From Nannochloropsis salina CCMP1776 (Eukaryota > Sar > Eustigmatophyceae > Eustigmatales > Monodopsidaceae), in contig SDOX01000188.1 of assembly GCA_004565275.1 (NCBI GenBank), positions 6,271 through 27,395 on the forward strand: a DNA stretch of 21,125 bases, written 5' to 3'. This document shows, in pieces, positions 1-17,228 of the stretch. A program made the position numbers and the translations under genes. Numbering within the stretch: position 1 is the stretch's first letter; each line of letters opens with the position of its first letter. The notes below the pieces were generated by a model. It was not told where the DNA came from and did no database searches. It saw nothing but the letters and a program-made list of their open reading frames with translations.

Positions 1-3000
1 CCCAGAAAGATAATTTTCCCTCCCTCCCTCCCTCCCTCCCTCACCGATGCTCGTGGATATTCTTGTAAGGGGGCTCGCAGGCTGGGTCCATGTATTTCTC
101 CACGTCGATGAAAAAATAACTTTTCTTCAACAGCCGCGACAAGGTGAAGGCGGTGGAGGCAAAGATCCCGGTCTCCATGACGATGTCTAGCAAGCTCCGG
201 CTTCCGGTCTGGTGGTACCGAAGGAGGAAGGGAAGGGGGGAAGGGGAGGGAGAAGACCCTGGCCAGTAGGCAAAACACATGTGGGAAGCTGCCCGCCGGG
301 GGGAGGAGGACGACCGGAGGAGGGAGTGGTAGGTGGCGGCGGCCCAGTTGCCGAGGGAGGGCGGGAGGGAAGCCCGGGAGGGAAGAATGTAGCAGGTCAA
401 GACTTGGCTGGTTTCTTGCCAGAGCCGGTAGAGACAGTAGGCAAGAAGGGAAGTTTCCAGGAGGAGGAAGGTTCCAGGAAATTTCCGCGTGGGGTAGGAA
501 GCCGGGGCGGTGGAGGAAGGCAGCGCCTCCACCGCCTTCCCGCCCTCGGTCCAACCGTCCTCCTCCTCCCCTTCCTCCGGACCCTCTGGATCTGATCCCT
601 GGAATATCGCCCAGAAAAAGGCGTGGCTCTTGGGATCCGCCGCCCCTCTCCCTCCCTTGTCCCTTCGGTCCGCCATGGGCGGTCCGCCCGCCGCAGGAGG
701 TGGCGGGGGATCCCCCCCCCTCTCGTCCTTCCTCAGCACCGCGTCCTTGGTATGACGCCCCTGATTATTCCACCCTTTGGGCCCATATCTTCCCCAACAT
801 CCCCTTGAGGTACCCCGAGCCTGCCCCTGCCCCCGCTGCTCTGGTTGCCGTCGGCGTCGCTGTGCGGCTTGGCTCCGGGACGCGTGCCGAATCACCATGT
901 TGGGCACGTAGACCGCTTGCAAGTGGTTCGCGATCTTCATGTACTTGAGTTCCCGGACTTTTTGTACCAGCTCCCAGAGGGCCCACACGAGGAAGGAGAT
1001 GTAGATGAGGAGGACGCCAATCTGGTCCGGGTGGGGGGGGAGGAAAGGGTTCCGAAAATGGATCCCAGAGACGTGAATGGCAGGTTAAAGCGCGCCGTGC
1101 TCTGTCCACGAACAAGACGCATGCGAAGCCCATTCTTTCGGCCCATGTTAGCGGCCTGAGACGCGTGCTGCGACGCTCTATTTGCCTCCCCCTTTCTTTT
1201 TTCCCCTTCCCCCCCAAGGAAGGACCCGCCTGCCTCCCGTGTGGCCCTTTACCATAGTCCCCCGGATTCTGTACCTGAGGCCACGTCGCCAGCCCTTTGA
1301 TCCCTTCGCTGAGCGTGCACTTCCCCTCCGTCATCTCCTCCCGCAACGGGTTGGTGTAGTAACGTCCCGTTCCTGGATCCCGGGCATTCCCTTGCCAGAA
1401 GGCGTGGCTCACCCACATGTAGTCCCCGCCGTCCGCCGCGCTCTGCCGGACTGTGAGGTCGAAAGGACAGGTGCGGCTGGTGGTTTCATAGGTAGGGGGG
1501 AGGAGGGTGGTGCAAGACTGAGCATCAAGGGCCCAATGCTGGGAGGCCATGATGCCCAACGTGGCCTGGAGCAGGGAAGGGAAGAGGGGAAGGACAGAGA
1601 GCGCGACGAATTGAAAAGTGTAGAAGGTGATTTCATCGTCCAGGTTGGCTTGCCAATAGGACGGGGTCAGGTCACGGGGGAGGGCCGGGCGGAGGGAACG
1701 AGGGAGGCAGCGACAGCAGCAGCAAGCCAAGCAGGAGAAAAAAGCCAGAAGAACCGGACGTAGGAAGGGGGGGCAGATGCCGTTGAGGAGGATGGTCAGG
1801 TAGGGTGTGTTGGAGGCCTCCAGCACGTCGAGGACGACCTGAGGAAGGAGGAAGGGAAACGGGAAGAAAGCAGGGTGAGGGCCGGGAAGGGGAGGGGGGG
1901 GGGCAAGCAATAGGGAGGACTCAGGAGGGAACGACGAGGGAGGATGCATCGGCCACATTACCTCCTTGTGCAGCCAAGCCACGGCTGGGTCCCGCCCGTG
2001 GCATTTCAAGAGTCCTTCGTACTGCTCGTTCAGGACGTCGCGTTCCGCCTGCGTGTACAGGCGGACGTAATTTCGCGCAATTTCGAATCCGATTTGGCGG
2101 GCATCGTAGGATTTCAACAAGGCGGGGTTGAGAGCCGAAGACGCAGAGGGCTTCATGGCGGGAATGGAGGCGGGCTGCTGGGAGGGCGGAATGCCGGAGG
2201 CAGGAAGGGAGGAGGAGGAGGAGGGAGAGGGGGAGGTGGGGGAAGGGGAAGCGGGTTGGAAGCGGAAAGAGATGCGGCGGCCGGTTAAAATCGTTGGATA
2301 GGATAGGGAAGGGGATGACGGGGGTGATGCGATGGCGGTTGAAGGAGGAAGAGTTGAGGGGAAGGGAGCAAGGCCCTGCCCGCTTCCGGTCGGTACGGCG
2401 CCTTGGGCACGGGAAAGGTGCCGGCTGGCTGCGTCGTCGCCGCTACACATGCGTTCGTTGCTTTCTAATGGTAATCCTAGCTGTGATCTGTTGTCTTGAT
2501 GGGAGGGGTGCGCCTCCTCATGGCACGGCCGAGGGGTTGGTCCCGTGTGGCCCCCTCCCGCCTGGCTTCGTCCGAGGGAAGCCAGGGGGGTAGTCGGGTA
2601 TGTACGGGATGAAGGGAGGGCAGACGGGGCCATAATACCACGTGCCGTATTTTGGCGTGGATATCGGACATAAGGGTTCGGGACGCCCGAAGAGAGGCGA
2701 GGAAGATCTTCACTTCCATGGGCATCTCCACTGTGGACCTCGAGTAGTCGCACCGGCGCACACGACGTTTGCTTGCGCAGCAGGTCAGGGTCTATTCTGT
2801 AATGAGGCATTGCTTGTATCTCATTTCGCTCGTCATCGGAAGGGTTCAAGCTATTGCGCTTTATTCCCGGGCGGCTCGTCCCTTTTCTGCTCGCGAAAAG
2901 TCGTGGAAGACCTGGCATGGGTGAGACTGGTGGAGATGGCGGTGACTGTGGGCGGTAGGCAGCATGCTTGTCAGGTCGAGAAAGCTCTACGTCTGTAGAG

Positions 3001-3125
3001 AGTGAAACTGCTATTAGAGGAGAAGGAGTTGGCGAAGTGGGAGGCGGAGAAGGGATGGATGTGTCGTTTGAGCGTGGTTGTGGGAGTGGTCGCGGCGCTT
3101 TTGCTGGCGGCGATTCCCCAGGCAT
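1..3125 (-). CDS. Multi-pass membrane protein of unknown family, 3' end beyond the window
   Basis: Three exons are inferred: 3125-1962 (388 codons), 1838-1275 (188 codons) and 1021-45, with introns 1961-1839 and 1274-1022. Donors GTAATG, GTACAG and GTGAGG and C/T-rich acceptors keep one frame, so over 900 residues lie in the window. I start at the first ATG (3125); the frame also opens at a GTG four codons earlier. The first 330 or so residues are Ser/Pro-rich and probably disordered. A more ordered part follows (SYDARQIGFEIARNYV), then hydrophobic segments: one with a Cys cluster (LACCCCRC), one around FQFVALSVLPLF, one opening exon 3 (IGVLLIYISFLVWALWEL), and weaker ones near 570 and 160. 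A Pro/Gly/Glu-rich loop lies between the helices of exon 3. The exon 3 acceptor was chosen because only that frame continues the membrane helix. I do not recognise the family. The gene is divergent from its right neighbour. Confidence 0.7.
18..42. repeat. CCCT tandem repeat at an intron donor
   Basis: About six CCCT units. On the minus strand, the coding strand of the membrane protein, it reads as GGGA repeats directly after the donor GTGAGG, so this intron begins purine-rich rather than having the tract before its acceptor. Confidence 0.85.
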
Positions 3126-4157
3126 GATGTGTTCCACTCAGCTTTCCTATAACTAAAGATGGTTTGGAGGATAATTGAAAAGACTGAAATGTGCGTCATA
3201 TTGTCTAAAAAGCTCATGAAGCGAAGAATATGAGGCAGTGTGCCTTCGTCCTAGCGGCAAGTCCACCTCTGTCAATTGAAATCAAGAAAGCGCCTTCCGT
3301 CCAGTCACATGAATTATGTAAACCAATTATTATATTATCCAAATCAATCAATTTTTCATCATAATTTGTTGGAGCATAGGTGAATATAAATGTCAAATGC
3401 ACGTAAGAAAACTTTATCGAGGTCTGTGGAGGAGGCCTAAACGGTCGCCTGTCCGTTTAAATTTGAAATGAGCCGTTTCTACAAGTCTTTCTCGATGCCG
3501 CTTCAGCTTTAGGATGCGTTTCACTTCTTCTGCGAATCGAGCTAATACTATTCTTCTCATGCACTTCATGGTACAAAGTCTTCTTGTTTCTTGTTTCACG
3601 CCTTGCTATATTGAAACAGCTGGTGCAGAATGTAGTCCATTCTGCTGCGGCAGTACTTGATTGATTCATCATTTCTTGTGGCTTCCTTTTGATTCGTTTC
3701 GCCCCCAATTTTGCAGGAGATCCCTGAGTTATGACATACCCGTCCTTTCTCGCGAATTTGTGGAGTGGATTCTTTACTGGAGGGAGCAGTCAAGAAAAGC
3801 AGACTGGTGATTCTGTCGCAGATGTCCTGCCCGTCGACTTCAAGGTAGACAGCTTGAGCACGAGCATGACTACAACCCCACAAGGCAGGTTGCAAGGACC
3901 CCCCAACTTGAAAGAAGGGTACGTGACAATGACATCGCGCATAAGAAAGGGAACAGTTTTTTTCAGGAGCCTGACAACTTGACACGATTAACTTCAATCG
4001 CGAAAGATAAAGAGTAAAGCTTGTCACTTTTATACTGTGATATGTTCCTCGTCAAACCACCCGTCACCCTCTCCCTCCTGCCCATTCCTGACTCGCTCAC
4101 AGCAAGAGCCCATTCCTTCGCGAAGCTGCTTCCCCGTGCCTGGATAATCAAGAGCGG
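3126..4157. other. Intergenic region between two divergent genes
   Basis: About 1 kb, less GC-rich than the flanking genes, with an AT-rich core near 3290-3400. It presumably holds both promoters, but I see no convincing core element. A plus-strand frame at 3731-3982 starts with ATG and encodes 83 residues without a recognisable motif; it could be a small gene or chance. A minus-strand frame at 4027-3596 starts with GTG only and I do not support it. Confidence 0.5.
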
Positions 4158-5946: not shown

Positions 5947-8228
5947 ATGGAGGAACCGAGAGGGAAAGAAGTATCGCACGATGCCCCATCAACACCTACT
6001 GCTCAAGCCTCGCCATCTATGGCAAAAGTCATCTTTCTATCTTCCTTTGGCTCTATCTTAGAGTTGATGGATTTTAGGTAAGCTTTTTCCGACCTCAACT
6101 TTTCTGTTATCATTCGCTAGCTTTACATTTTCGATTCAGCACGAGACGTTCAGAGAACTCACAAATGCACATACGAGCGGGGTTTTGAAGAGACAAGAAC
6201 AAACATTACATGCGATGGATCTTGCAGGCAGGGGTACTTCCTAACAAGATGCGTGCATAACCAAGGCATTGCTCCCGGCATGCCCAATATGGACGACACT
6301 TTAACACATCTCCTTTTACTGAAATATAAGGCAACTGCTCCCTGACACCTGCGTTTTGTCTTGACCATCCTCACAGCGCCTACGGCTTTTTTGCCGAAGA
6401 GATCGGCCAGGCATTCTTCCCTCCTTCCACCTCTTCCACAGTTCGGCTCATCCGATCCTTCGCCGTCTTTTCTGGTGCTTTTTTATTCCGTCCAATCGGT
6501 GGCCTTTTTTTCGGGTGGCTGGGAGACACTTACAGCAAGAAACACGCCCTCGTTTTGTCCCTCTCCCTGATGGCCCTGGCCACCACAGGCGTCGGTTTCC
6601 TCCCCCCCTACTCCTCGATTCACATACTTTCTCCTATCCTGCTTACCCTGCTTCGTCTCCTGCAAGGCTTTTCAGTGGGCGGGCAACTCGTTGGCACCAT
6701 GGTTTTCGTCGCACACCATGCCTTCCAGCCCCCTCTACCCCCTCCCTCAAGCTCTTCCTCTGGTTCATCGCCCTTCCGTCCCTCTCCCCCTCCATCCTCC
6801 CTGCAAGGATTCTACGGGGGTATGGTCGTCTTTGCGGGGACGCTCGGCCTCGTTTTTGGCGCCTTCCTCTCTTTTCTCCTCCACCGCTTCCTTCCCCACA
6901 CCTTCCTCCGGACCTGGGGCTTCCGGATCCCTTTTTTGATGGGCGTGGCCGTCGGACCTGCGGCCTACTTCCTCCACCGCGACATCCCCACAGACCTTCG
7001 GGCCAGTACCACCGAAGGCCAGCATCCTGCGGTCGGTTTGGTGGCTCCGTCTGCTCTGCCCCCCACCGGGTCTCCCCACACGGACGCCGGTCCACCGTCG
7101 GGCATTTCCACCCAGGCGGCCCCGAGGGATAAAGACCGAGAGGGCGGGGAGGAAGACGAGAACCCTATCGGAGCCGTTTTTCACGAGCACTTGCTCGAGA
7201 TTGTCCTGGGCATAGGGGTGACAGCCCTGTGGTGCGGAGGTAAGGAGGGGGAATCCCAGGCGGCGCCTTAAGGGTGTATAAACGTCGTCATACATTGAAG
7301 GCCCGACTAAGCGACGCTTTCTATACGCCGCTTCAACTATCTGTCTTTTGCGCTATCCCTCCTTCCCTCCTTTCACAACCCCTTGCCAAGGTGTCTACCA
7401 ATGCTTTATCTGGATGCCCACCTACCTCACCGTGCTGGCCCCGCACGCCCCGGTTCCGGGTACCTTTTCCATCACCACCGCGTGGTTGGTCCTGTTCACC
7501 TGCCTCCTGCCCGTCTCGGGGCATCTGGCCGACCGGTTAGGGTTCTATCCCGTCATGCTCACTGGAGGTAGAGTCCTTGCCCCCCCCCCTCCCCCTCGTT
7601 TTGCTCCCCCTTCCCGTCCAATCTTCTTCCTTAGTTGATGTTCTAGCCCCACCTTGTGTCCTTCCGTGTCCTTGTCCCTTATGCCTCGCCTCTCCTCCCG
7701 CTTCACCGACCCGTGACTTCCCCACCCCCGTCCTCCGTCGCCCCCTTCTTGGGTGCACAGGTCTCATCACCGCCTTGACGGCCTGGCCTACGTTTTTCCT
7801 CCTGCGCCTCGGCCATCCCCTCGCCACCTCCTTCGCGCCAATTTTCTATACTGTGGGCCTCTCTCTCTTCGGCGGCCCCATCCCATATTTCCTCACGGTG
7901 CATGCCACACCCTCCTCCTCCCTCCCTCCCTCCCTCCCCCCCCCATCTCTTCACGTCCGTCTCGATCATCTACAACTTCACCCAAGCCTTGTTCGGGGGA
8001 ACGGTCAGCATCGTGGCCACGGCGCTGGTGAAGACGAACGGGGGCCTTGGGCCCGAATGGCTCTTGATGGGAACGGCCTTGTTGTCCTCCGGGTGCCTGG
8101 TCGTAGGCTGGAGGCCCGCAGGCGTCGTTGCTCGGCGGAAACGGAGAGGACGGAACGCGTGGAAGGCGCTAGTGCTTGCCATGAAGAGCATGACGACCAC
8201 ATGCCATGCGGCGAGGGCGGAGGTTTAG
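5947..8228 (+). CDS. MFS transporter, metabolite:H+ symporter (ProP-like) type
   Basis: A membrane carrier of the MHS branch of the major facilitator superfamily, which moves small metabolites such as organic acids or betaine with protons; the substrate cannot be told. Exons: 5947-6077, 6377-7239, 7391-7567 and 7761-8228. Joins restore family motifs: ILELMDFSAYGFFAEEIG across intron 1 (family: LEWYDFxxYG), LLRLLQGFSVGGQLVG in exon 2, and LWCGGVYQCFIWMPTYLT across intron 2. The loop motif GDTYSKKHAL stands where most members have GDRxGRK. A Ser/Pro-rich insert sits in the loop after the SVGGQLVG helix, and the central loop after the sixth helix is long and polar. In exon 4 the frame changes between PIPYFLTVHAT and SVSIIYNFTQALFGG, inside a CCCT tract ending in nine C (7911-7954). 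No AG acceptor is present there, so this is probably a homopolymer or repeat-length error, or a lost piece of intron, rather than a dead gene. Length near 540 residues, longer than the usual 430-450. Confidence 0.85.
7911..7954. repeat. CCT/CCCT tract ending in a C run, inside the transporter gene
   Basis: CCTCCTCCTC followed by CCCT units and a run of nine C. The transporter reading frame changes across this tract. It is either in-frame coding for a Pro/Ser loop with a length error or the remains of an intron. Confidence 0.8.
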
Positions 8229-9075
8229 TTGGGTAAAAAATAGGCGGGGGGAAAGGTGTGATGAAGGTGTCGCCACCGGACAAGCTTGCTCTTTACATCT
8301 AATGTATATGTATGAGCAATAAGCGTGCAGGGTTTTGCTTCTTGCGTGCGCTTTCAAAAAATTAAATAAACATGAATAGAAGCCTGCCTTTTTGTCATCG
8401 GTTGGGCTGAATGGGGCCGACGGGATCATAATTTGTATCGATTCGCTTGTGACGGTTCACGTGGGCGATGGCCTCCTAGGAGATAGCTCGCCGGGCATGG
8501 ACTCAAGCTGCCCCAACCGAGCATGGCAAGGGAGGCAACAACAGCAATGCTGTCAGGTGGTTTAGCTTTAAATTCGTTCCTTCTTTCCACAGGGGACACA
8601 TACTCACAGAATGACTACGACTTTAAATTTCTCAACAACCCCCCCCTCTTTTCCTTCCCGCACACGATACCATGGCCGTCGACTCTTAATTGGTTTTCGA
8701 GTTTCCCCCACGCGTTTCATTGCACTGCGCTTTCATGCTGCTTCTCCCTCTGACCCTCCCCAGCCCTCCCGGATTTCCGCCTTCTTTGCATATATGTGGA
8801 TCGCAGTATTTATTAATATATATATTGTGCCGGTGGCTGGCCTGGTGCTTTGGAAATTTTACCTTTTTATATCGTCCTCCTCCGTCCCTCCCGCCACCGA
8901 GACGGCTGGGCCCCCGTGTTGTCCCCACATCCGGGTACCCTCGGAGGACTCTCCTGGGAGTTAACAGTGTAGCTTCGCCCCGGGAGGATGCTACAAGACT
9001 TGTCTTCCCCCATCGCGGATGCCACCGGAGCTTCTGCCGCCTGCTCGCATTTGCCGCTTGCACTGACTTTGCCTC
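8229..9075. other. Region between the ends of two convergent genes
   Basis: The transporter (plus) and the HDAC-like gene (minus) both end here. The stretch is mixed in composition, with an AT-rich patch at 8805-8830 (alternating TA) and C/T-rich patches. I support no gene in it. A frame at 8690-9412 on the plus strand is Pro/Ser-rich and is largely the shadow of the HDAC-like gene. Confidence 0.5.
8456..8467. promoter_or_regulatory. Second copy of the TTCACGTGGGCG element
   Basis: Exact 12-base match to 5889-5900, about 230 bases after the transporter stop codon. Its role is unknown; it may be chance, as CACGTG occurs elsewhere in the window. Confidence 0.15.
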
Positions 9076-10321
9076 TCATTGGCTCGTCCGGCACACCAGG
9101 GTCGTCTGTACACCCCCGCCCTCCCCCACGCCCTCCTTCCCGCCCTCCCTCCCTTCCTCCTTCCTTCCCTCCTCCTCCCGCCCCGGGTCCAGCAAGGCCC
9201 CGACCACGCTCAGCACCGCCTCCTCTTCCTCCTTCCCGCCCTCCCCCGCACCCTCCATCACCACCACCACCTTCCCCCCTCCACAGGCATCCATGGCGCG
9301 CAAGACCTGCTGGGTCACCCGCCCGACCTCCTTCCCCTTCCATCCCCCTCCCTTCCCCGGTTTTCCCACCAGTTCCAAGCCCCACGACAGGAATATAAAT
9401 CGAGGGGAATAGGCTTGAAGGCGGGGAAGGAAGGCTTCTTCCACCATCCGCCGCACCGCTTCCTCCCTCCCGCCTTCCTTCCCGCCCTCCTCCCGGCCTG
9501 GCGCCAGGCTGAAGACATGGACCCCGTCCTCTGCCCCGCCCTCCCTTCCTTCCTCCCCTCCCGCTTCCCCAAAGAGGGAAAAGACCTGGAAGATCCCGTG
9601 CGCCGTACGTCCTTGTTGCACCCACCTTAAGCAATCCTCCGTCCCTTTCGCGCGCTTTTCATGGAGGGAGACCACCGCCACCCGGTCGTAGCGCTCTGAG
9701 GCCCGAGCAGCGGCGGCCGCCACCGGGTTGAGCAGGGAGGGCGGGAGGGAGGGCGGGAGGGAGGGCGGGGGGCAGGTAGCCTGTGGGCCCCACCAAGTGG
9801 TGGGAGGAAGACATGGCGGTGGGGGAGGAGGAGGGGAGGAGGCAGAGGGCGTTTCGTTTTCGCCCCGCCAAGAGGTGGTCCGTGGCGAGGTAAAGGCCCG
9901 ACAGAACCCGTTGCTCCGAAGCCAGGAGGGAGGGCGGGAGGGAGGGCGGGAGGGAGGGCGGGGTCGGGGTAGGGGTGTTGGGGAGGGAGTGGAGGAAGGC
10001 CAAGTAGGCAGGAGAGTGGATCCGGCTGAGGGCCGAGCCCGTTTCCTCCTTCGTGCCCTCCCTCCCGCCTTCCCTCCCGCCCTCCACAAAGGGGACTTGG
10101 GGCACGTGGGAGACAACGTGCAGGCGATGAGACGGGAAGAGCGAGGAAGAGCGGAGGCGCGTGAGGAGGGAGGAAGGAAAGGCGGGCACGGGTAGACCCT
10201 CCGGGGAGGGGAGGGGGCGAGGGAGGGGGGGAGGGAGGGGGAGGGGGAGGGGCGTGGGCTGGGGGGGGGAGCGTGATCGGGTCGGGCGAGGGGGAGAGCA
10301 CGGTGGCCGCCGAGGTCGCGC
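9076..10321 (-). CDS. Histone-deacetylase-like protein with a degenerate active site, 5' end in the gap
   Basis: Blocks of the arginase/deacetylase fold appear in order on the minus strand. Block A, 10040-9981: SRIHSPAYLAFLHSL (family: vHsxeYixxL). Block B, about 9930-9780: LSGLYLATDHLLAG, then SSSHHLVGPTGY where active members have GHHAxxxxxGFC. Block C, from about 9735: NPVAAAAARASERYDRVAVV, then SLHEKRAKGTED where active members have DxDxHHGxGTxD. Next comes VHVFSLAPG (family: NxPLxxG), FLPRLQAYSPRFIFLSWGLE (family: PxxxxPxxxxxSAGFDA) and KVVVVMEGAG (family: VxxxEGGY). The usual zinc ligands Asp, His, Asp and the catalytic Tyr all appear replaced (His, Lys, Glu, Gly by my alignment); the HH pair is retained. 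Blocks A/B and C lie in different frames, changing across the 12-base repeat at 9735-9772, where I find no usable splice acceptor. The Gly/Arg/Glu-rich C-terminus ends at TGA 9078-9076. Probably a pseudoenzyme or chromatin-complex scaffold. Confidence 0.65.
9735..9772. repeat. 12-base minisatellite (CCCGCCCTCCCT on the minus strand)
   Basis: About three copies of GGGAGGGAGGGC on the plus strand, inside the HDAC-like gene, at the point where its reading frame changes. The same unit recurs at 9926-9963 and 20355-20400. Confidence 0.85.
9926..9963. repeat. 12-base minisatellite, second copy in the HDAC-like gene
   Basis: About three copies of the same unit, between blocks A and B of the HDAC-like protein. 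The frame stays open through it as Pro/Ser/Leu repeats, so it may be translated or intronic. Confidence 0.85.
10054..10085. repeat. Minisatellite in inverted orientation in the HDAC-like gene
   Basis: CCCTCCCTCCCGCCTTCCCT-like sequence on the plus strand, opposite in polarity to the copies at 9735 and 9926. In the coding direction it would give Gly-Gly-Arg-Glu repeats before block A. Confidence 0.75.
10195..10270. repeat. G-rich low-complexity tract beside the assembly gap
   Basis: Runs of three to eight G separated by A or GA over some 75 bases on the plus strand, directly before the gap. Such a tract could form G-quadruplexes and explains why the assembly broke here. Confidence 0.7.
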
Positions 10322-10421
10322 NNNNNNNNNNNNNNNNNNNNNNNNNNNNNNNNNNNNNNNNNNNNNNNNNNNNNNNNNNNNNNNNNNNNNNNNNNNNNNN
10401 NNNNNNNNNNNNNNNNNNNNN
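10322..10421. other. Assembly gap of 100 N
   Basis: Exactly 100 unknown bases, the usual placeholder for a gap of unknown size. It separates the MYB-type gene from the HDAC-like gene, both on the minus strand, and hides the 3' end of one and the 5' end of the other. Confidence 1.
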
Positions 10422-11935
10422 GCGTCACTCATCCACCCTTCCTCCTCCTCCTCTTCTTCCTCTCCCTCCCCGTCCTCCTCTCCTTCCTCCTCGCCTTCCC
10501 CCTCCAGACCCTTGGCACGCTTCTCCTGCCTCCACTTGCCCTCCCCTCGCCTCCCCCCCCTCCCCTCCCCTCCCTCCCCCCCCCTTCCTTCCTCCTCGAC
10601 CCCGACCTCCCCGCACCTCCCTCCCCTTCCTCCTCCCCACCCCCCGTGATGAATGTGGAAGGCAGGTGGCCGCCGACGGGGGTGGGGGGGAGCGAGAAGA
10701 TCGGATCGGGTTGGATCGTCCTTTCCCCTGGGAGGACGCGGGCGGGAGGGCGGAGGAGAGGGAGAGCGAACGTTGCTTGGTACCGCTCACCCATTCCTCT
10801 CCGCTGGACCCTTCCCCTCCTCCTCCCTTCCCTCCCCCGGTGCTCCCTGCCCGAGCTCGAGGGCCTCCCCGTCCTCCCCCCCCGCCTCCACTCGCGGTGG
10901 AATTGCTTCGCTTCCGCCCGCTCCCATTGTTCCCACCTCCTTTTCTCGCCTCCCCCCCCGCTCGCCCCGCTCCCCTCCCCCCCCTGCCTCCCCACGGGCC
11001 CGACCCTCCTCCCTCCCCCCCCCTCCCCCTCCTTCGTCCTCGTAGTCACTGTCCTCCTTGCTCGCTTCCACCGCGTCCTCCAGACTCGCCCCGTTCGCCA
11101 TTTGCTTCTGCAGCTTTTGGAAGTACTTCTGGGCGTGTGTCCGAGTTTGCACCACGGTTCGCGTCCCCACCTCCCCAGCCACCCGTTTCCATTCTTTGCC
11201 CCATTTCTTCAGACCGTCCACGAATCGATCGTGCTCCAGTCGGGACCAACGCCCGGTGTGCTCGGCGCCCGGGGCACAGACAGGAGCGAGGGAGGGCCCG
11301 AGGGAGGGCGGGGGGGAAGGACCGAGGGAGGGAGGGGAATGGCCCTCCCAGGCCTGAACCAGGGCAGGACCGTCCTCATCCGGGTATCCTAACTGCCGGG
11401 CTTTCTTTCGCGCAATGTGTTGGACTTGGGCCGCCATTTGTCCGAGCGTGGGCACCCCTCGCTTGCTCCCGTGACTGCTGCTGCCGGTCTGGGGTTCCGA
11501 GATGGGGGGATGCGAAGGGAGAGAATGTAGCTGCGAGGGCTGCGGTTGGGGCGGATGCGGGGGAAAGTCGGGGACGTAGGGAGACAGCTGGTGGCTTCCC
11601 CCGTTGCTGTTGCTCCTCCGCCGACTCTTCCCCGCCGCAGTGGCAGGGGGAGGAGGGAGGGGGGGAGGGAGGCCCAGGAGGTGGGGCGGAGGGGGAGGGA
11701 AAGGAGGCGGGGGAGCACCGTTAAAGGAGGGGAAGGAGGGAGGAAGGGGAGGCTGGGAGCCACCGGGCAGGAGGAGGTCGGGGTGGGAGGAAGGGAGGGG
11801 ATCCGGAGGGGAGAGTAGCAGGGAAGGGTGCGACGGCGGGAGGTGGGACGATGCGCCTCCCTCCCCTCCCCTGGGCCCTCCTTCCCTCCCTCCCGCTCCC
11901 TGCGAAAATGGGTCAGACGCTGCCAATGCCTCCAT
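10422..11935 (-). CDS. MYB-related SHAQKYF-class DNA-binding protein, 3' end in the gap
   Basis: One MYB/SANT repeat lies at about 11250-11106: GRWSRLEHDRF, then GLKKWGKEWKRVAGEV, then GTRTVVQTRTHAQKYF. The three spaced Trp and the THAQKYF end place it in the SHAQKYF class of one-repeat MYB-related factors, known in plants and other eukaryotes as nuclear transcription regulators. I start at ATG 11935 (MEALAAS). The frame stays open upstream to about 12211 with a Gln-rich stretch, but begins there only at GTG, so an upstream exon is possible. Residues before the repeat are Pro/Ser/Gly-rich. After it comes an acidic patch (SKEDSDYEDE) and Gly/Arg/Glu repeats up to a TGA at 10789-10787. Splicing from 10791 (GTGAGC) to 10727 (CCCAG) removes 63 bases and the stop and leads into about 100 further open codons ending in a Glu-rich tail at the gap. 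That intron is shorter than the others, so this join is less sure than the MYB repeat. Confidence 0.8.
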
Positions 11936-13893
11936 GGTCGCGATCGGATCCTTTTCTCTCGTGGGTCCCGTTGTCAGGCCTGCGGAACCGACGTCTAAGC
12001 TGCCGTACGGGCGCTCAGGCTGGTGCTGCTGCTGCCGGGGCTGCTGCTGCTTCTTTTTCGATCTTTTTACCCCCTCGAAACCTCTAATTCCCGCGGTAAA
12101 GGCCCGTGGGACAAGCAAGGTAGATGGAGACCAAAGACAATGGGGACGTTCAACGTCGCGCTTTTGGGTTGAATGCTGACGTGCGAGGCTGCCAGGTAAT
12201 TCAACAAGCACAGCTCGTGCTTGTGGCCATCAGGAATTTAAAAACTGCGTGGATCGGTGCGGTCGACTTGTAATGTAGTGGGAAGTTGGGCGAAAGCCAG
12301 ATTGGGACGGCTGGAAGAGACAGGATGAGGCCGGTACCGTCCCTGTCCTTGCTTATCTCGTCAATGGACTAGTTAGTCAGTCTCCTGTGAGTACAATCCG
12401 GGAGCAATGTTGATGAAAAAGCATGAGGTACGGGTAAAATGGATATGCCGTGAGGTAGGATGATATCCCCAAGACGAGGAACAAGAGCGAAGACGCAAAT
12501 GGGTGCGCCTTTTTCCCTCCCCACGAAGTCCAGAGAGCTGACAGAACGTCGTAAAGAGCATATATACTCGCACATGAACATTGCCGATGTAGACTTGAGG
12601 TCTAAGAGGATTTCAGCCTCCATTATGCCGGGTCCCAAAAGCACAGAAAATGGGAGAGAAAAGAATCTCGGCCCCCGTTTCTTCTCTCGTCTCAAGCCAA
12701 TATCAGAAAATGCTTCCTCACCCTCACACCCAGGAAGCCATCCCGGTCACGAGTAGATGATCACATTTGCGAACAGATCAAGAGAAAGACCGCTTCGTGT
12801 GGTGCATGTCAAACCCCCGCTGGGCATTTTTAAAAGGATTGCCAGGGCGGCTTTCGGTCCTACGGGCGCCTGAAGGTCTAATTGATTCTCAGTGGTCACC
12901 CTCCTTTCATTTCCACGCACGACCCGACACAAACATGCACACCTTCAAACGTCACGACGGACAAACACCGCATTCGTCCCGTTTCGTCCCCGGGCGTGGG
13001 GGCCTGGGGAATAGTGGATTAGATATGATACTAAAAGCGACACTTGGCGAGAGAGGTCGTAGCTGAAAAAGCGACCAGAAGCCTCACAGGCATAGGGAAA
13101 ACCCTCGTCCCGCCCACTTTGGCGCACAACCACGACGCGCGCGGGTGAGCTTCGCACACTGTGTGCGACCATTGTTTCTCCTAGCGCTGGAGCAAAGTGC
13201 AGGAAATGCCTGCATGAACGCATCTTGGATTGAATTTATAGATATGTGGTCAAGGCCGCCTGAAAATTTTCATTCCGACGGTCCGGGTAGCTTTTTGCGG
13301 AGGAAAGAGGAGGGGGTTTAAGGACGGCAGTAGGCGTGGCACTGTCCTTGTTGCATGTTCCGTGTGTGTCGCGCGTGTATATGTTGATCGTACTGAAATT
13401 AATCATCGGCTTTCTGCTCTGTGGTATCACTTATGCTACGGGGCCACGAGCAAATCGATCTTGACATAGCACGACAGCTAGCCCTGTAGTGTTCCATACA
13501 GAAAGCAAATCCATTTAAATGAAGCGTGTAACATTACCTCCGTCATCACAGTGCATGATGCAAAGAGAAAATGTTGGGGTTAAATTCTTCATGCGGTCCC
13601 GAACTCTCGACGTACCTTGAAAATGTTTCTCGATAATCCAATTTCAAGTTTGTGGGTAATTTGATAAGGGGCGGTCTGCAAATGCTATTAATCACCGCAA
13701 TGCCGGAGTCCTGTACAGTCATAAATAAGCGGGGGTATACACTTATAAATCAAAAGCAAGGTCGCACACATCACGCTCGAGCATGAGCTAGACTCCTGTT
13801 CTCCGAACACTCCCGCACGGCCTGTTTTTGATTTCTTCTTTCTACTCCCACAAAAAACGGGAGAGGGATATCATGTGTGTACTATATAAAGGC
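11936..13893. other. Region upstream of the MYB-type gene
   Basis: From 11936 to 12211 the MYB frame remains open on the minus strand (Gln-rich, QQQPRQQQHQPERP) and may be coding or 5' leader. Beyond it I see no supported gene. Frames at 12695-12369 (minus, 108 codons) and 12460-12756 (plus, 98 codons) overlap each other and show no motif. AT-richer sequence lies at 13370-13780, presumably the 3' flank of the cyclin gene. Confidence 0.45.
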
Positions 13894-16262: not shown

Positions 16263-17228
16263 ATGGCGCTTGAGGCCTGTTCTGGCATTCTTTCCTCCGC
16301 ATCAAAAGCATTTCGAGAAGCAAGCTCCACGACCCCGGGGTGGATAGTCTTTCTTTCATTTGGTGCGGGGGCGCTTGCCAGCAGCTTTCTACCAAGCATG
16401 CGAAAGACGGGAAGAAAAAAAAGAGGCTGGCAGTGGCCCTCAGAGGCCTTGGAGGAGGAAGCGGACGAAGGCAGTGACAGTGAGAGGAGCGACACAGAGG
16501 AGTCTGCCGATGGAATGACCAGTGCTAAGACGATTCGGGATTTTCCTCTGGTATCTGGCCCATTCAAAATGGTATTGTGTGTGAACATGGAGCTTTCGAT
16601 GGGCAAAGGCAAGATCGCCGCTCAGTGCGGGCACGCGACGTTGGGAGCGTACAAACGGGCACGTCGACTGGCTCCCAGGACTCTGCAAGGGTGGGAATAC
16701 ATGGGGTAGGTGGTGTTGAGCCAGGGGGAACGGGACGCAAAGGAAAGAGGGCTTGGGAAGGGCGGGGAGAAGGCAAGGAGACAGAGCATGGTGGGGAGGG
16801 AGCTTCGTGACCCGGCCCAGAGGGACGGCCTCGCTTGCGCTGGTACGCCAGGGACGCTGCATGCCCCTTCAAGAGCCTGGCCGAGGCTTGACAGAGCGTC
16901 CTTGACCGTCCATCTCGACCCCTGTCTCGTTCTTCCTACTCCCTGCCTTTCCACTCCCTCCCGTCTATCCTTTTTTCTCTCTCTCTCACACACACACCCT
17001 CCAATCCCCTTTCCCTTGCTCAGTCAGGCCAAAATCTGCCTCAAAGTTCCCGATCAGGCGGAGCTGGAGCGGCTCCGTGTCCTGGTTAAGAAAGCGCATT
17101 TGATCTCCTATCAGGTCGAAGACGCTGGTCGGACGCAGATTGCAGCCGGCTCTCAGACAGTCTTGGCCATCGGACCTGCCCCCGTCCAAGAAATCGACCG
17201 CATCACGGGGCACCTCAAACTGTTGTAG
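16263..17228 (+). CDS. PTH2: Peptidyl-tRNA hydrolase 2 (Pth2/Bit1 family) with N-terminal anchor
   Basis: Releases tRNA from peptidyl-tRNA that drops off the ribosome. Two exons, 16263-16705 and 17024-17228, give 215 residues; the intron (318 bases, donor GTAGGT, acceptor TTGCTCAG) is joined in phase 2 and yields [13 protein letters not shown], as in the family. The catalytic domain spans about residues 101-215: [32 protein letters not shown], then [19 protein letters not shown], then the C-terminal TGHLKLL. All the family's hallmark segments are present, so it should be active. Residues 27-43 ([17 protein letters not shown]) form one hydrophobic helix, followed by basic residues and an acidic linker (60-85). 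This resembles animal Pth2/Bit1, which is anchored in the mitochondrial outer membrane; the location here is inferred. Confidence 0.95.

What the first reader, a model, noticed from the sequence alone, without database searches (positions are those of the whole stretch)
9076..10321. Histone-deacetylase-like protein that seems to have lost its zinc site
The scaffold motifs of class I/II deacetylases occur in order, yet DxDxHHG is replaced by SLHEKRA, SAGFDA by SWGLEL and EGGY by EGAG. By my alignment all three metal ligands and the catalytic Tyr are changed, while the HH pair and the structural strands remain hydrophobic and orderly. A kept fold with a lost metal site points to a pseudoenzyme, perhaps a regulatory subunit or reader, rather than random decay.
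Basis: partly seen in the sequence, partly recalled or inferred. Interest (0 to 1): 0.75.

Follow-up and report, generated by a model that had tools for sequence, protein, structure and literature searches.

The report
Dead deacetylase domain, perhaps MYB-fused
An algal-looking gene carries a histone-deacetylase-like domain whose metal-binding and catalytic residues are nearly all replaced while its folded core looks preserved, and it may be joined to a DNA-binding MYB domain, suggesting a binding module rather than an enzyme.

Summary
On the minus strand, 9079-10213 encodes a diverged class II-like deacetylase domain: read across one frame change it passes Pfam Hist_deacetyl (31.2 bits, cut-off 27.9). 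Against 47 relatives with an intact site, DxDVHHGN is replaced by SLHEKRAK, GFD by GLE and EGGY by EGAG; of the catalytic residues only the HH pair survives. The motif patterns searched for DxDxHH, GFDA and EGGY match nowhere in six frames of the window. Not in the finding: the HH pair and the DxDVHH position lie in different reading frames, near a 12-nt repeat array, and a 100-N gap hides the start. Decay alone fits poorly: the hydrophobic core is kept at 0.85, while simulated neutral decay of matching divergence keeps 0.56-0.63 (0 of 288 runs reach the window). The upstream MYB-SHAQKYF frame ends in a donor-like sequence, and the one pyrimidine-led acceptor before the gap restores an open frame through an acidic linker: a MYB fusion is plausible, unproven. 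No orthologue, transcript or read data were available. Pseudodeacetylase domains are known (HDAC10): a new variant of a known kind.

The parts
9079..9768 (-). Second half of the deacetylase-like domain (230 codons, one open frame)
   Evidence: Pfam Hist_deacetyl 24.4 bits, E 2.2e-5; 5ji5 E 0.0018; no stops, shuffle expectation 4.8, P 0.005
9785..10213 (-). First half of the deacetylase-like domain, in another frame (RIHSPAYLAFL, ATDHLLAGRKRNALCLL, HH pair)
   Evidence: Weak collinear match to the relatives' profile (0.6-1.2 bits) and to 5ji5 residues 60-128 (8.8 bits, i-Evalue 6.9); no Pfam match alone; adding it lifts Pfam from 24.4 to 31.2 bits
9797..9802 (-). Codons of the retained HH pair
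   Evidence: HH in all 48 rows; kept
9734..9784 (-). Stretch between the two halves in which the reading frame changes; holds a perfect 3-copy 12-nt tandem repeat at 9734-9769
9646..9669 (-). SLHEKRAK in place of D(W/F)DVHHGN: two metal ligands replaced
9370..9387 (-). SWGLEL at the GFDA motif: third metal ligand Asp -> Glu
9241..9255 (-). EGAGE in place of EGGY: catalytic Tyr lost
9076..9078 (-). Stop codon ending the frame of the second half
10322..10421 (.). Assembly gap of 100 N upstream of the domain
10422..10727 (-). Acidic linker: candidate second exon of the MYB gene, open into the gap
   Evidence: The only one of three frames without a stop, though the other two have one stop each, within 10 bases of the gap; spliced translation
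10728..10790 (-). Candidate 63-nt intron: donor GTGAGC overlapping the MYB stop, pyrimidine-rich tract, CAG acceptor
   Evidence: Of two CAG/TAG sites before the gap, the one with a pyrimidine-rich lead (0.85); phase-compatible
10791..12229 (-). MYB-SHAQKYF reading frame (MYB domain at about 11120-11254)
   Evidence: PF00249 E 8.9e-10; TIGR01557 E 3.8e-8, 33.5 bits against cut-off 29.3

Best explanation
The stretch encodes a deacetylase-fold domain, class II / HdaH-like, that has lost catalysis and probably metal binding but still folds: a pseudodeacetylase. Most likely it works as a protein-binding module. It could pair with an active deacetylase through the domain-domain surface, as the pseudodeacetylase half of HDAC10 does with its active half, or hold an acyl-lysine or corepressor partner without cleaving it. 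If it is the C-terminal half of the MYB-SHAQKYF protein upstream, the MYB repeat would bring it to DNA. Shown by computation: homology, residue replacements, core retention. Inferred: expression, the partner, the MYB link, and that the frame change near the repeat array is an assembly error or otherwise tolerated.
For: Pfam score above cut-off on the read-through. Alignment with 47 relatives having an intact site: 19 of 51 columns conserved at 90% or more are kept (4 of the 32 lost are gaps in the window), but of the catalytic set only HH. Hydrophobic columns in the second half: 38 of 44 kept, against 67 hydrophobic of all 163 residues there. Simulated neutral decay at matching divergence keeps 0.56-0.63 against 0.85 observed; 0 of 288 realigned runs reach the window's value. 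No stop in 230 codons of the second half, P 0.005. Codon usage: the second-half frame leads in 6 of 6 windows starting from 9706 down; between the two homology frames the first leads in all 5 windows starting 10246-9886. AlphaFold2 with the alignment: pTM 0.78, mean pLDDT 70.4; the 50 PDB rows shown are deacetylase-family chains. Without any alignment the model is poor (mean pLDDT 40.6, pTM 0.38), yet its first 21 Foldseek PDB rows, and 40 of the 50 shown, are deacetylase-family chains.
Against: The frame is broken as assembled. No orthologue, transcript or read was available, so selection is inferred from one sequence. The comparison set is bacterial and viral-contig, and was found through its intact DVHHGNGT motif, so it holds no pseudo-members by design; eukaryotic relatives were not available. 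The simulation ignores indels, starts from enzymes like these relatives, and does not cover a long constrained divergence followed by a short decay. At lower divergence decayed sequences do reach the observed core value: 6 of 144, and 117 of 400 at d 0.2 in the fixed-column version. Codon usage is mixed in the first half: a third frame scores highest in 2 of the 5 windows, and the window 9796-9617, mostly second half, favours the first-half frame. Block 1 has no stop in any frame, so its openness says nothing (P 0.22). The single-sequence structure matches are weak: none at E 0.001 or below, TM-scores 0.14-0.23, and Foldseek also uses sequence.
Confidence: 0.6

Rival explanations
1. A decaying pseudogene of a deacetylase: catalysis lost, frame broken, no product.
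For: Frame change inside the domain; 32 of 51 highly conserved columns not kept; no relative of this version found in the collections searched.
Against: No stop in 230 codons of the second half (P 0.005); core retention 0.85 against 0.56-0.63 under neutral decay; coding-like composition in the homology frames (G+C at positions 1/2/3 of 0.75/0.50/0.79 in block 2 and 0.66/0.57/0.84 in block 1). The frame change lies near a repeat array, where assembly errors are common (inference).
Confidence: 0.25
2. An active enzyme with a rebuilt metal site: His and Glu in place of the two Asp ligands, together with the retained HH pair, bind a metal and support a different reaction.
For: HH pair kept; Asp -> His and Asp -> Glu are potential ligands.
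Against: The middle ligand His becomes Lys, and the catalytic Tyr and the flanking Asp, His, Gly and Asn are also replaced.
Confidence: 0.07
3. An artefact: low-complexity GC-rich sequence that matches the deacetylase profile by chance, or a local sequence error hiding an intact site.
For: Repeats throughout and an assembly gap.
Against: 2000 shuffles reach at most 9.9 bits against 22.2; two stretches match collinearly; the other frames of the window do not hold the missing motifs.
Confidence: 0.06

Closest known systems
Pseudodeacetylase domain of HDAC10
   Same: Deacetylase fold, catalytically inactive, inside a deacetylase-family protein (PMC5454378, passages read; PMC11532494, passages read).
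   Different: In HDAC10 it follows an active domain and lacks several active-site helices and loops; here no active partner domain is visible (a gap precedes it) and a MYB gene lies upstream. HDAC10 was not among the sequence matches.
HdaH / class II bacterial deacetylases (5ji5, 9glb and relatives)
   Same: Closest by sequence and by alignment-guided predicted fold.
   Different: The 47 aligned relatives keep the metal ligands and the catalytic Tyr; identity to the window is 18-24% in A2.
HDA15 (plant)
   Same: Top Foldseek row for the single-sequence model; a MYB protein, MYB96, interacts with HDA15 in Arabidopsis (PMC6461653, abstract in search listing).
   Different: There the MYB and the deacetylase are two proteins; here the catalytic site is lost and the MYB may be in cis.
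Arginase-like protein of Trypanosoma brucei (recalled; its paper was not found or read)
   Same: Same fold superfamily, metal site lost.
   Different: Arginase side of the superfamily.

Membership tests
Zinc-dependent histone deacetylase family (Pfam PF00850) | Profile score at or above the curated cut-off | tested here: met
   31.2 bits against 27.9 on the read-through P0001; the one-frame second half alone gives 24.4, below the cut-off, and the first half alone no match
Zinc-dependent histone deacetylase family (Pfam PF00850) | Three metal ligands DxH...D | tested here: not met
   His, Lys, Glu at these columns; no DxDxHH or GFDA pattern elsewhere in six frames of the window
Zinc-dependent histone deacetylase family (Pfam PF00850) | Catalytic Tyr of EGGY | tested here: not met
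   EGAGE
Zinc-dependent histone deacetylase family (Pfam PF00850) | HH dyad | tested here: met
   Kept, but in the other reading frame
HDAC10-type pseudodeacetylase | Lies C-terminal to an active deacetylase domain | not testable with these tools
   100-N gap upstream, true size unknown
HDAC10-type pseudodeacetylase | Deacetylase fold retained without catalytic residues | tested here: inconclusive
   Alignment-guided model pTM 0.78; single-sequence model poor, with weak deacetylase matches
MYB-SHAQKYF (upstream gene) | TIGR01557 score above cut-off | tested here: met
   33.5 bits against 29.3
MYB-pseudodeacetylase fusion | One continuous transcript across 10790-10322 | not testable with these tools
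   Candidate intron and open frame only

The most novel reading that the evidence does not exclude
One gene encodes a MYB-SHAQKYF DNA-binding domain, an acidic linker and a catalytically dead deacetylase domain: a transcription factor carrying its own deacetylase-shaped docking module, which holds a deacetylase complex or acylated chromatin at DNA without hydrolysis.
Probability: 0.35. Interest if true: 0.72.

Novelty: new variant of a known kind. Interest (0 to 1): 0.5.

Why it matters
Deacetylases are studied as enzymes; a family member kept by selection without its metal site would show that the fold itself is used for binding, as in HDAC10. If it is joined to a MYB domain, it would be a cis version of the MYB-deacetylase partnerships reported in plants and a direct test case for non-catalytic deacetylase function.

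Tried and rejected
Orthologues: the second-half protein found no relative in viral contigs, genome contigs or plasmids; P0001 found none in phages or plasmids; the MYB domain stretch and the first half found none in viral contigs. No own genome is held. NCBIfam gave no family for the domain. A GT-AG intron as the cause of the frame change was considered by eye only: I saw none of ordinary length that keeps the homology on both sides. A bacterial-type promoter and terminator scan of 8200-9100 was uninformative. A first codon-usage run trained with the MYB stretch in a wrong frame was discarded and repeated. An earlier count said that codon usage switches exactly where the homology does; on re-reading that is too strong, and the report states the mixed result. 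Literature: the listings of ten searches showed no report of this gene, of a pseudodeacetylase in an alga or of a MYB-deacetylase fusion; the listings are capped (for example 25 of 54 papers, 12 of 17,737, 10 of 45), and the library lacks most subscription journals. Passages only were seen of PMC13325672, PMC5454378, PMC8854648, PMC11532494, PMC2993927, PMC3145265 and PMC10707265; none of these passages describes such a protein.

Full report
What is there. The minus strand of 9079-10213 encodes a diverged deacetylase domain in two collinear pieces. The second piece (9079-9768) matches Pfam Hist_deacetyl at E 2.2e-5 and the PDB deacetylase 5ji5 at E 0.0018. The first piece (9785-10213) lies in another frame; alone it has no Pfam match and matches the family weakly (1.2 bits on the relatives' profile; 8.8 bits to 5ji5 residues 60-128). 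Read through as P0001, the domain scores 31.2 bits, above the curated cut-off of 27.9, and matches 5ji5 at E 7.1e-6, the other PDB matches being at E 0.16 or worse. Shuffles of P0001 (2000) reach at most 9.9 bits on a profile of 87 relatives where P0001 scores 22.2.

The active site. In an alignment with 47 relatives having an intact site, the window has S, H, E, K, R, A, K where all 47 have D, D, V, H, H, G, N (the variable second position aside); E for the D of GFD; and E for the Y of EGGY. The HH pair is kept. Of 51 columns conserved at 90% or more in the relatives, 19 are kept and 32 are not, 4 of these being gaps in the window.

Decay or retained fold. The second piece has no stop in 230 codons; dinucleotide shuffles expect 4.8 per frame, and 0.5% of 5000 have none. 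The first piece is uninformative (P 0.22, no stop in any frame). Codon usage trained on four coding stretches of the window (403 codons) puts the second-piece frame highest in 6 of 6 windows of 180 bases starting at 9706 to 9256. In the five windows starting at 10246 to 9886 the first-piece frame beats the second-piece frame in all five, but a third frame is highest in two, and the window 9796-9617 still favours the first-piece frame although it lies mostly in the second piece: support, but mixed. Hydrophobic columns of the second half are kept in 38 of 44. When relatives' sequences are mutated without selection and realigned by the same program, retention at matching divergence is 0.56-0.63 against 0.85 (0 of 288 runs reach the window's lowest value); at a lower divergence 6 of 144 reach it, none of them free of stops. 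The first version with fixed columns gave 117, 2 and 0 of 400 at d 0.2, 0.4 and 0.6. This argues for selection on the fold during or after loss of catalysis. It rests on one sequence and on bacterial and viral-contig comparators; the simulation has no indels and does not model a constrained divergence followed by a short decay.

The frame change. The switch falls between the two pieces, in or beside a perfect 12-nt tandem repeat (9734-9769). Whether it is an assembly error, a real break or something else cannot be told here. If it is real, the product is truncated or altered and the pseudogene reading gains.

Structure. AlphaFold2 with the 48-row alignment gives pTM 0.78 and mean pLDDT 70.4, with deacetylase-family chains in all 50 PDB rows shown; this is guided by the relatives and is weak evidence by itself. 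Without an alignment the model is poor (mean pLDDT 40.6, pTM 0.38); its first 21 PDB rows and 40 of the 50 shown are deacetylase-family chains, but at E 0.0035 and above and with TM-scores of 0.14-0.23.

The MYB neighbour. The next gene upstream on the same strand is a MYB-SHAQKYF protein. Its frame ends at a TGA that lies in GTGAGC, a donor-like sequence; 36 of 491 TGA triplets in the window have the GTGAG context. Between there and the gap two CAG/TAG sites exist, and one has a pyrimidine-rich lead (0.85; 43 of 857 such sites in the window reach 0.8); using it restores a frame that runs without a stop through an acidic linker into the gap. The other two frames hold one stop each, within 10 bases of the gap, so openness is weak evidence. 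The gap is 100 N, a length often used for unknown size (recalled). A fusion is plausible, at about one in three. In five model organisms the Hist_deacetyl domain has 0 to 1 partner domains, and in the human network it is one of three chromatin domains that tend not to co-occur with the others (PMC2993927, passages), so such a fusion would be unusual.

How it most likely works. Without its metal ligands and Tyr, the domain is not expected to use the family's mechanism. The known use of such a fold is pairing: in HDAC10 the pseudodeacetylase half packs against the active half (PMC5454378, passages). By analogy the domain here would bind a deacetylase or another partner, and the MYB, if joined, would place it on DNA. 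Plant MYB proteins work with separate deacetylases (MYB96 with HDA15, PMC6461653, abstract in the listing; AS1 with HDA6, PMC3521718, abstract in the listing). These steps are inference.

Verdict. A real deacetylase relative with a lost active site: high confidence. A functional pseudoenzyme rather than a pseudogene: moderately favoured (0.6 against 0.25). It is a new variant of a known kind, the pseudodeacetylase domain; the possible MYB fusion is the novel part.

Noticed in passing
6330-7271 +: Reading frame of a sugar/MFS-type transporter (PF00083 E 1.9e-9), convergent with the deacetylase-like gene.
   Followed up: no
16560-17225 +: Peptidyl-tRNA hydrolase PTH2 in two pieces (PF01981), apparently split by an intron between about 16706 and 17022.
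   Followed up: partly
9115-11715: Dense GC-rich tandem repeats, many of 12 nt, within open frames, encoding PPALPP- and GREGG-like tracts.
   Followed up: partly
10508-10525 and 9643-9660, -: The peptide EKRAKG occurs both in the acidic linker and at the lost metal site, with different codons; probably chance.
   Followed up: no
41-3137 -: Two overlapping long reading frames (347 and 790 aa) without a Pfam match at E 0.01.
   Followed up: no
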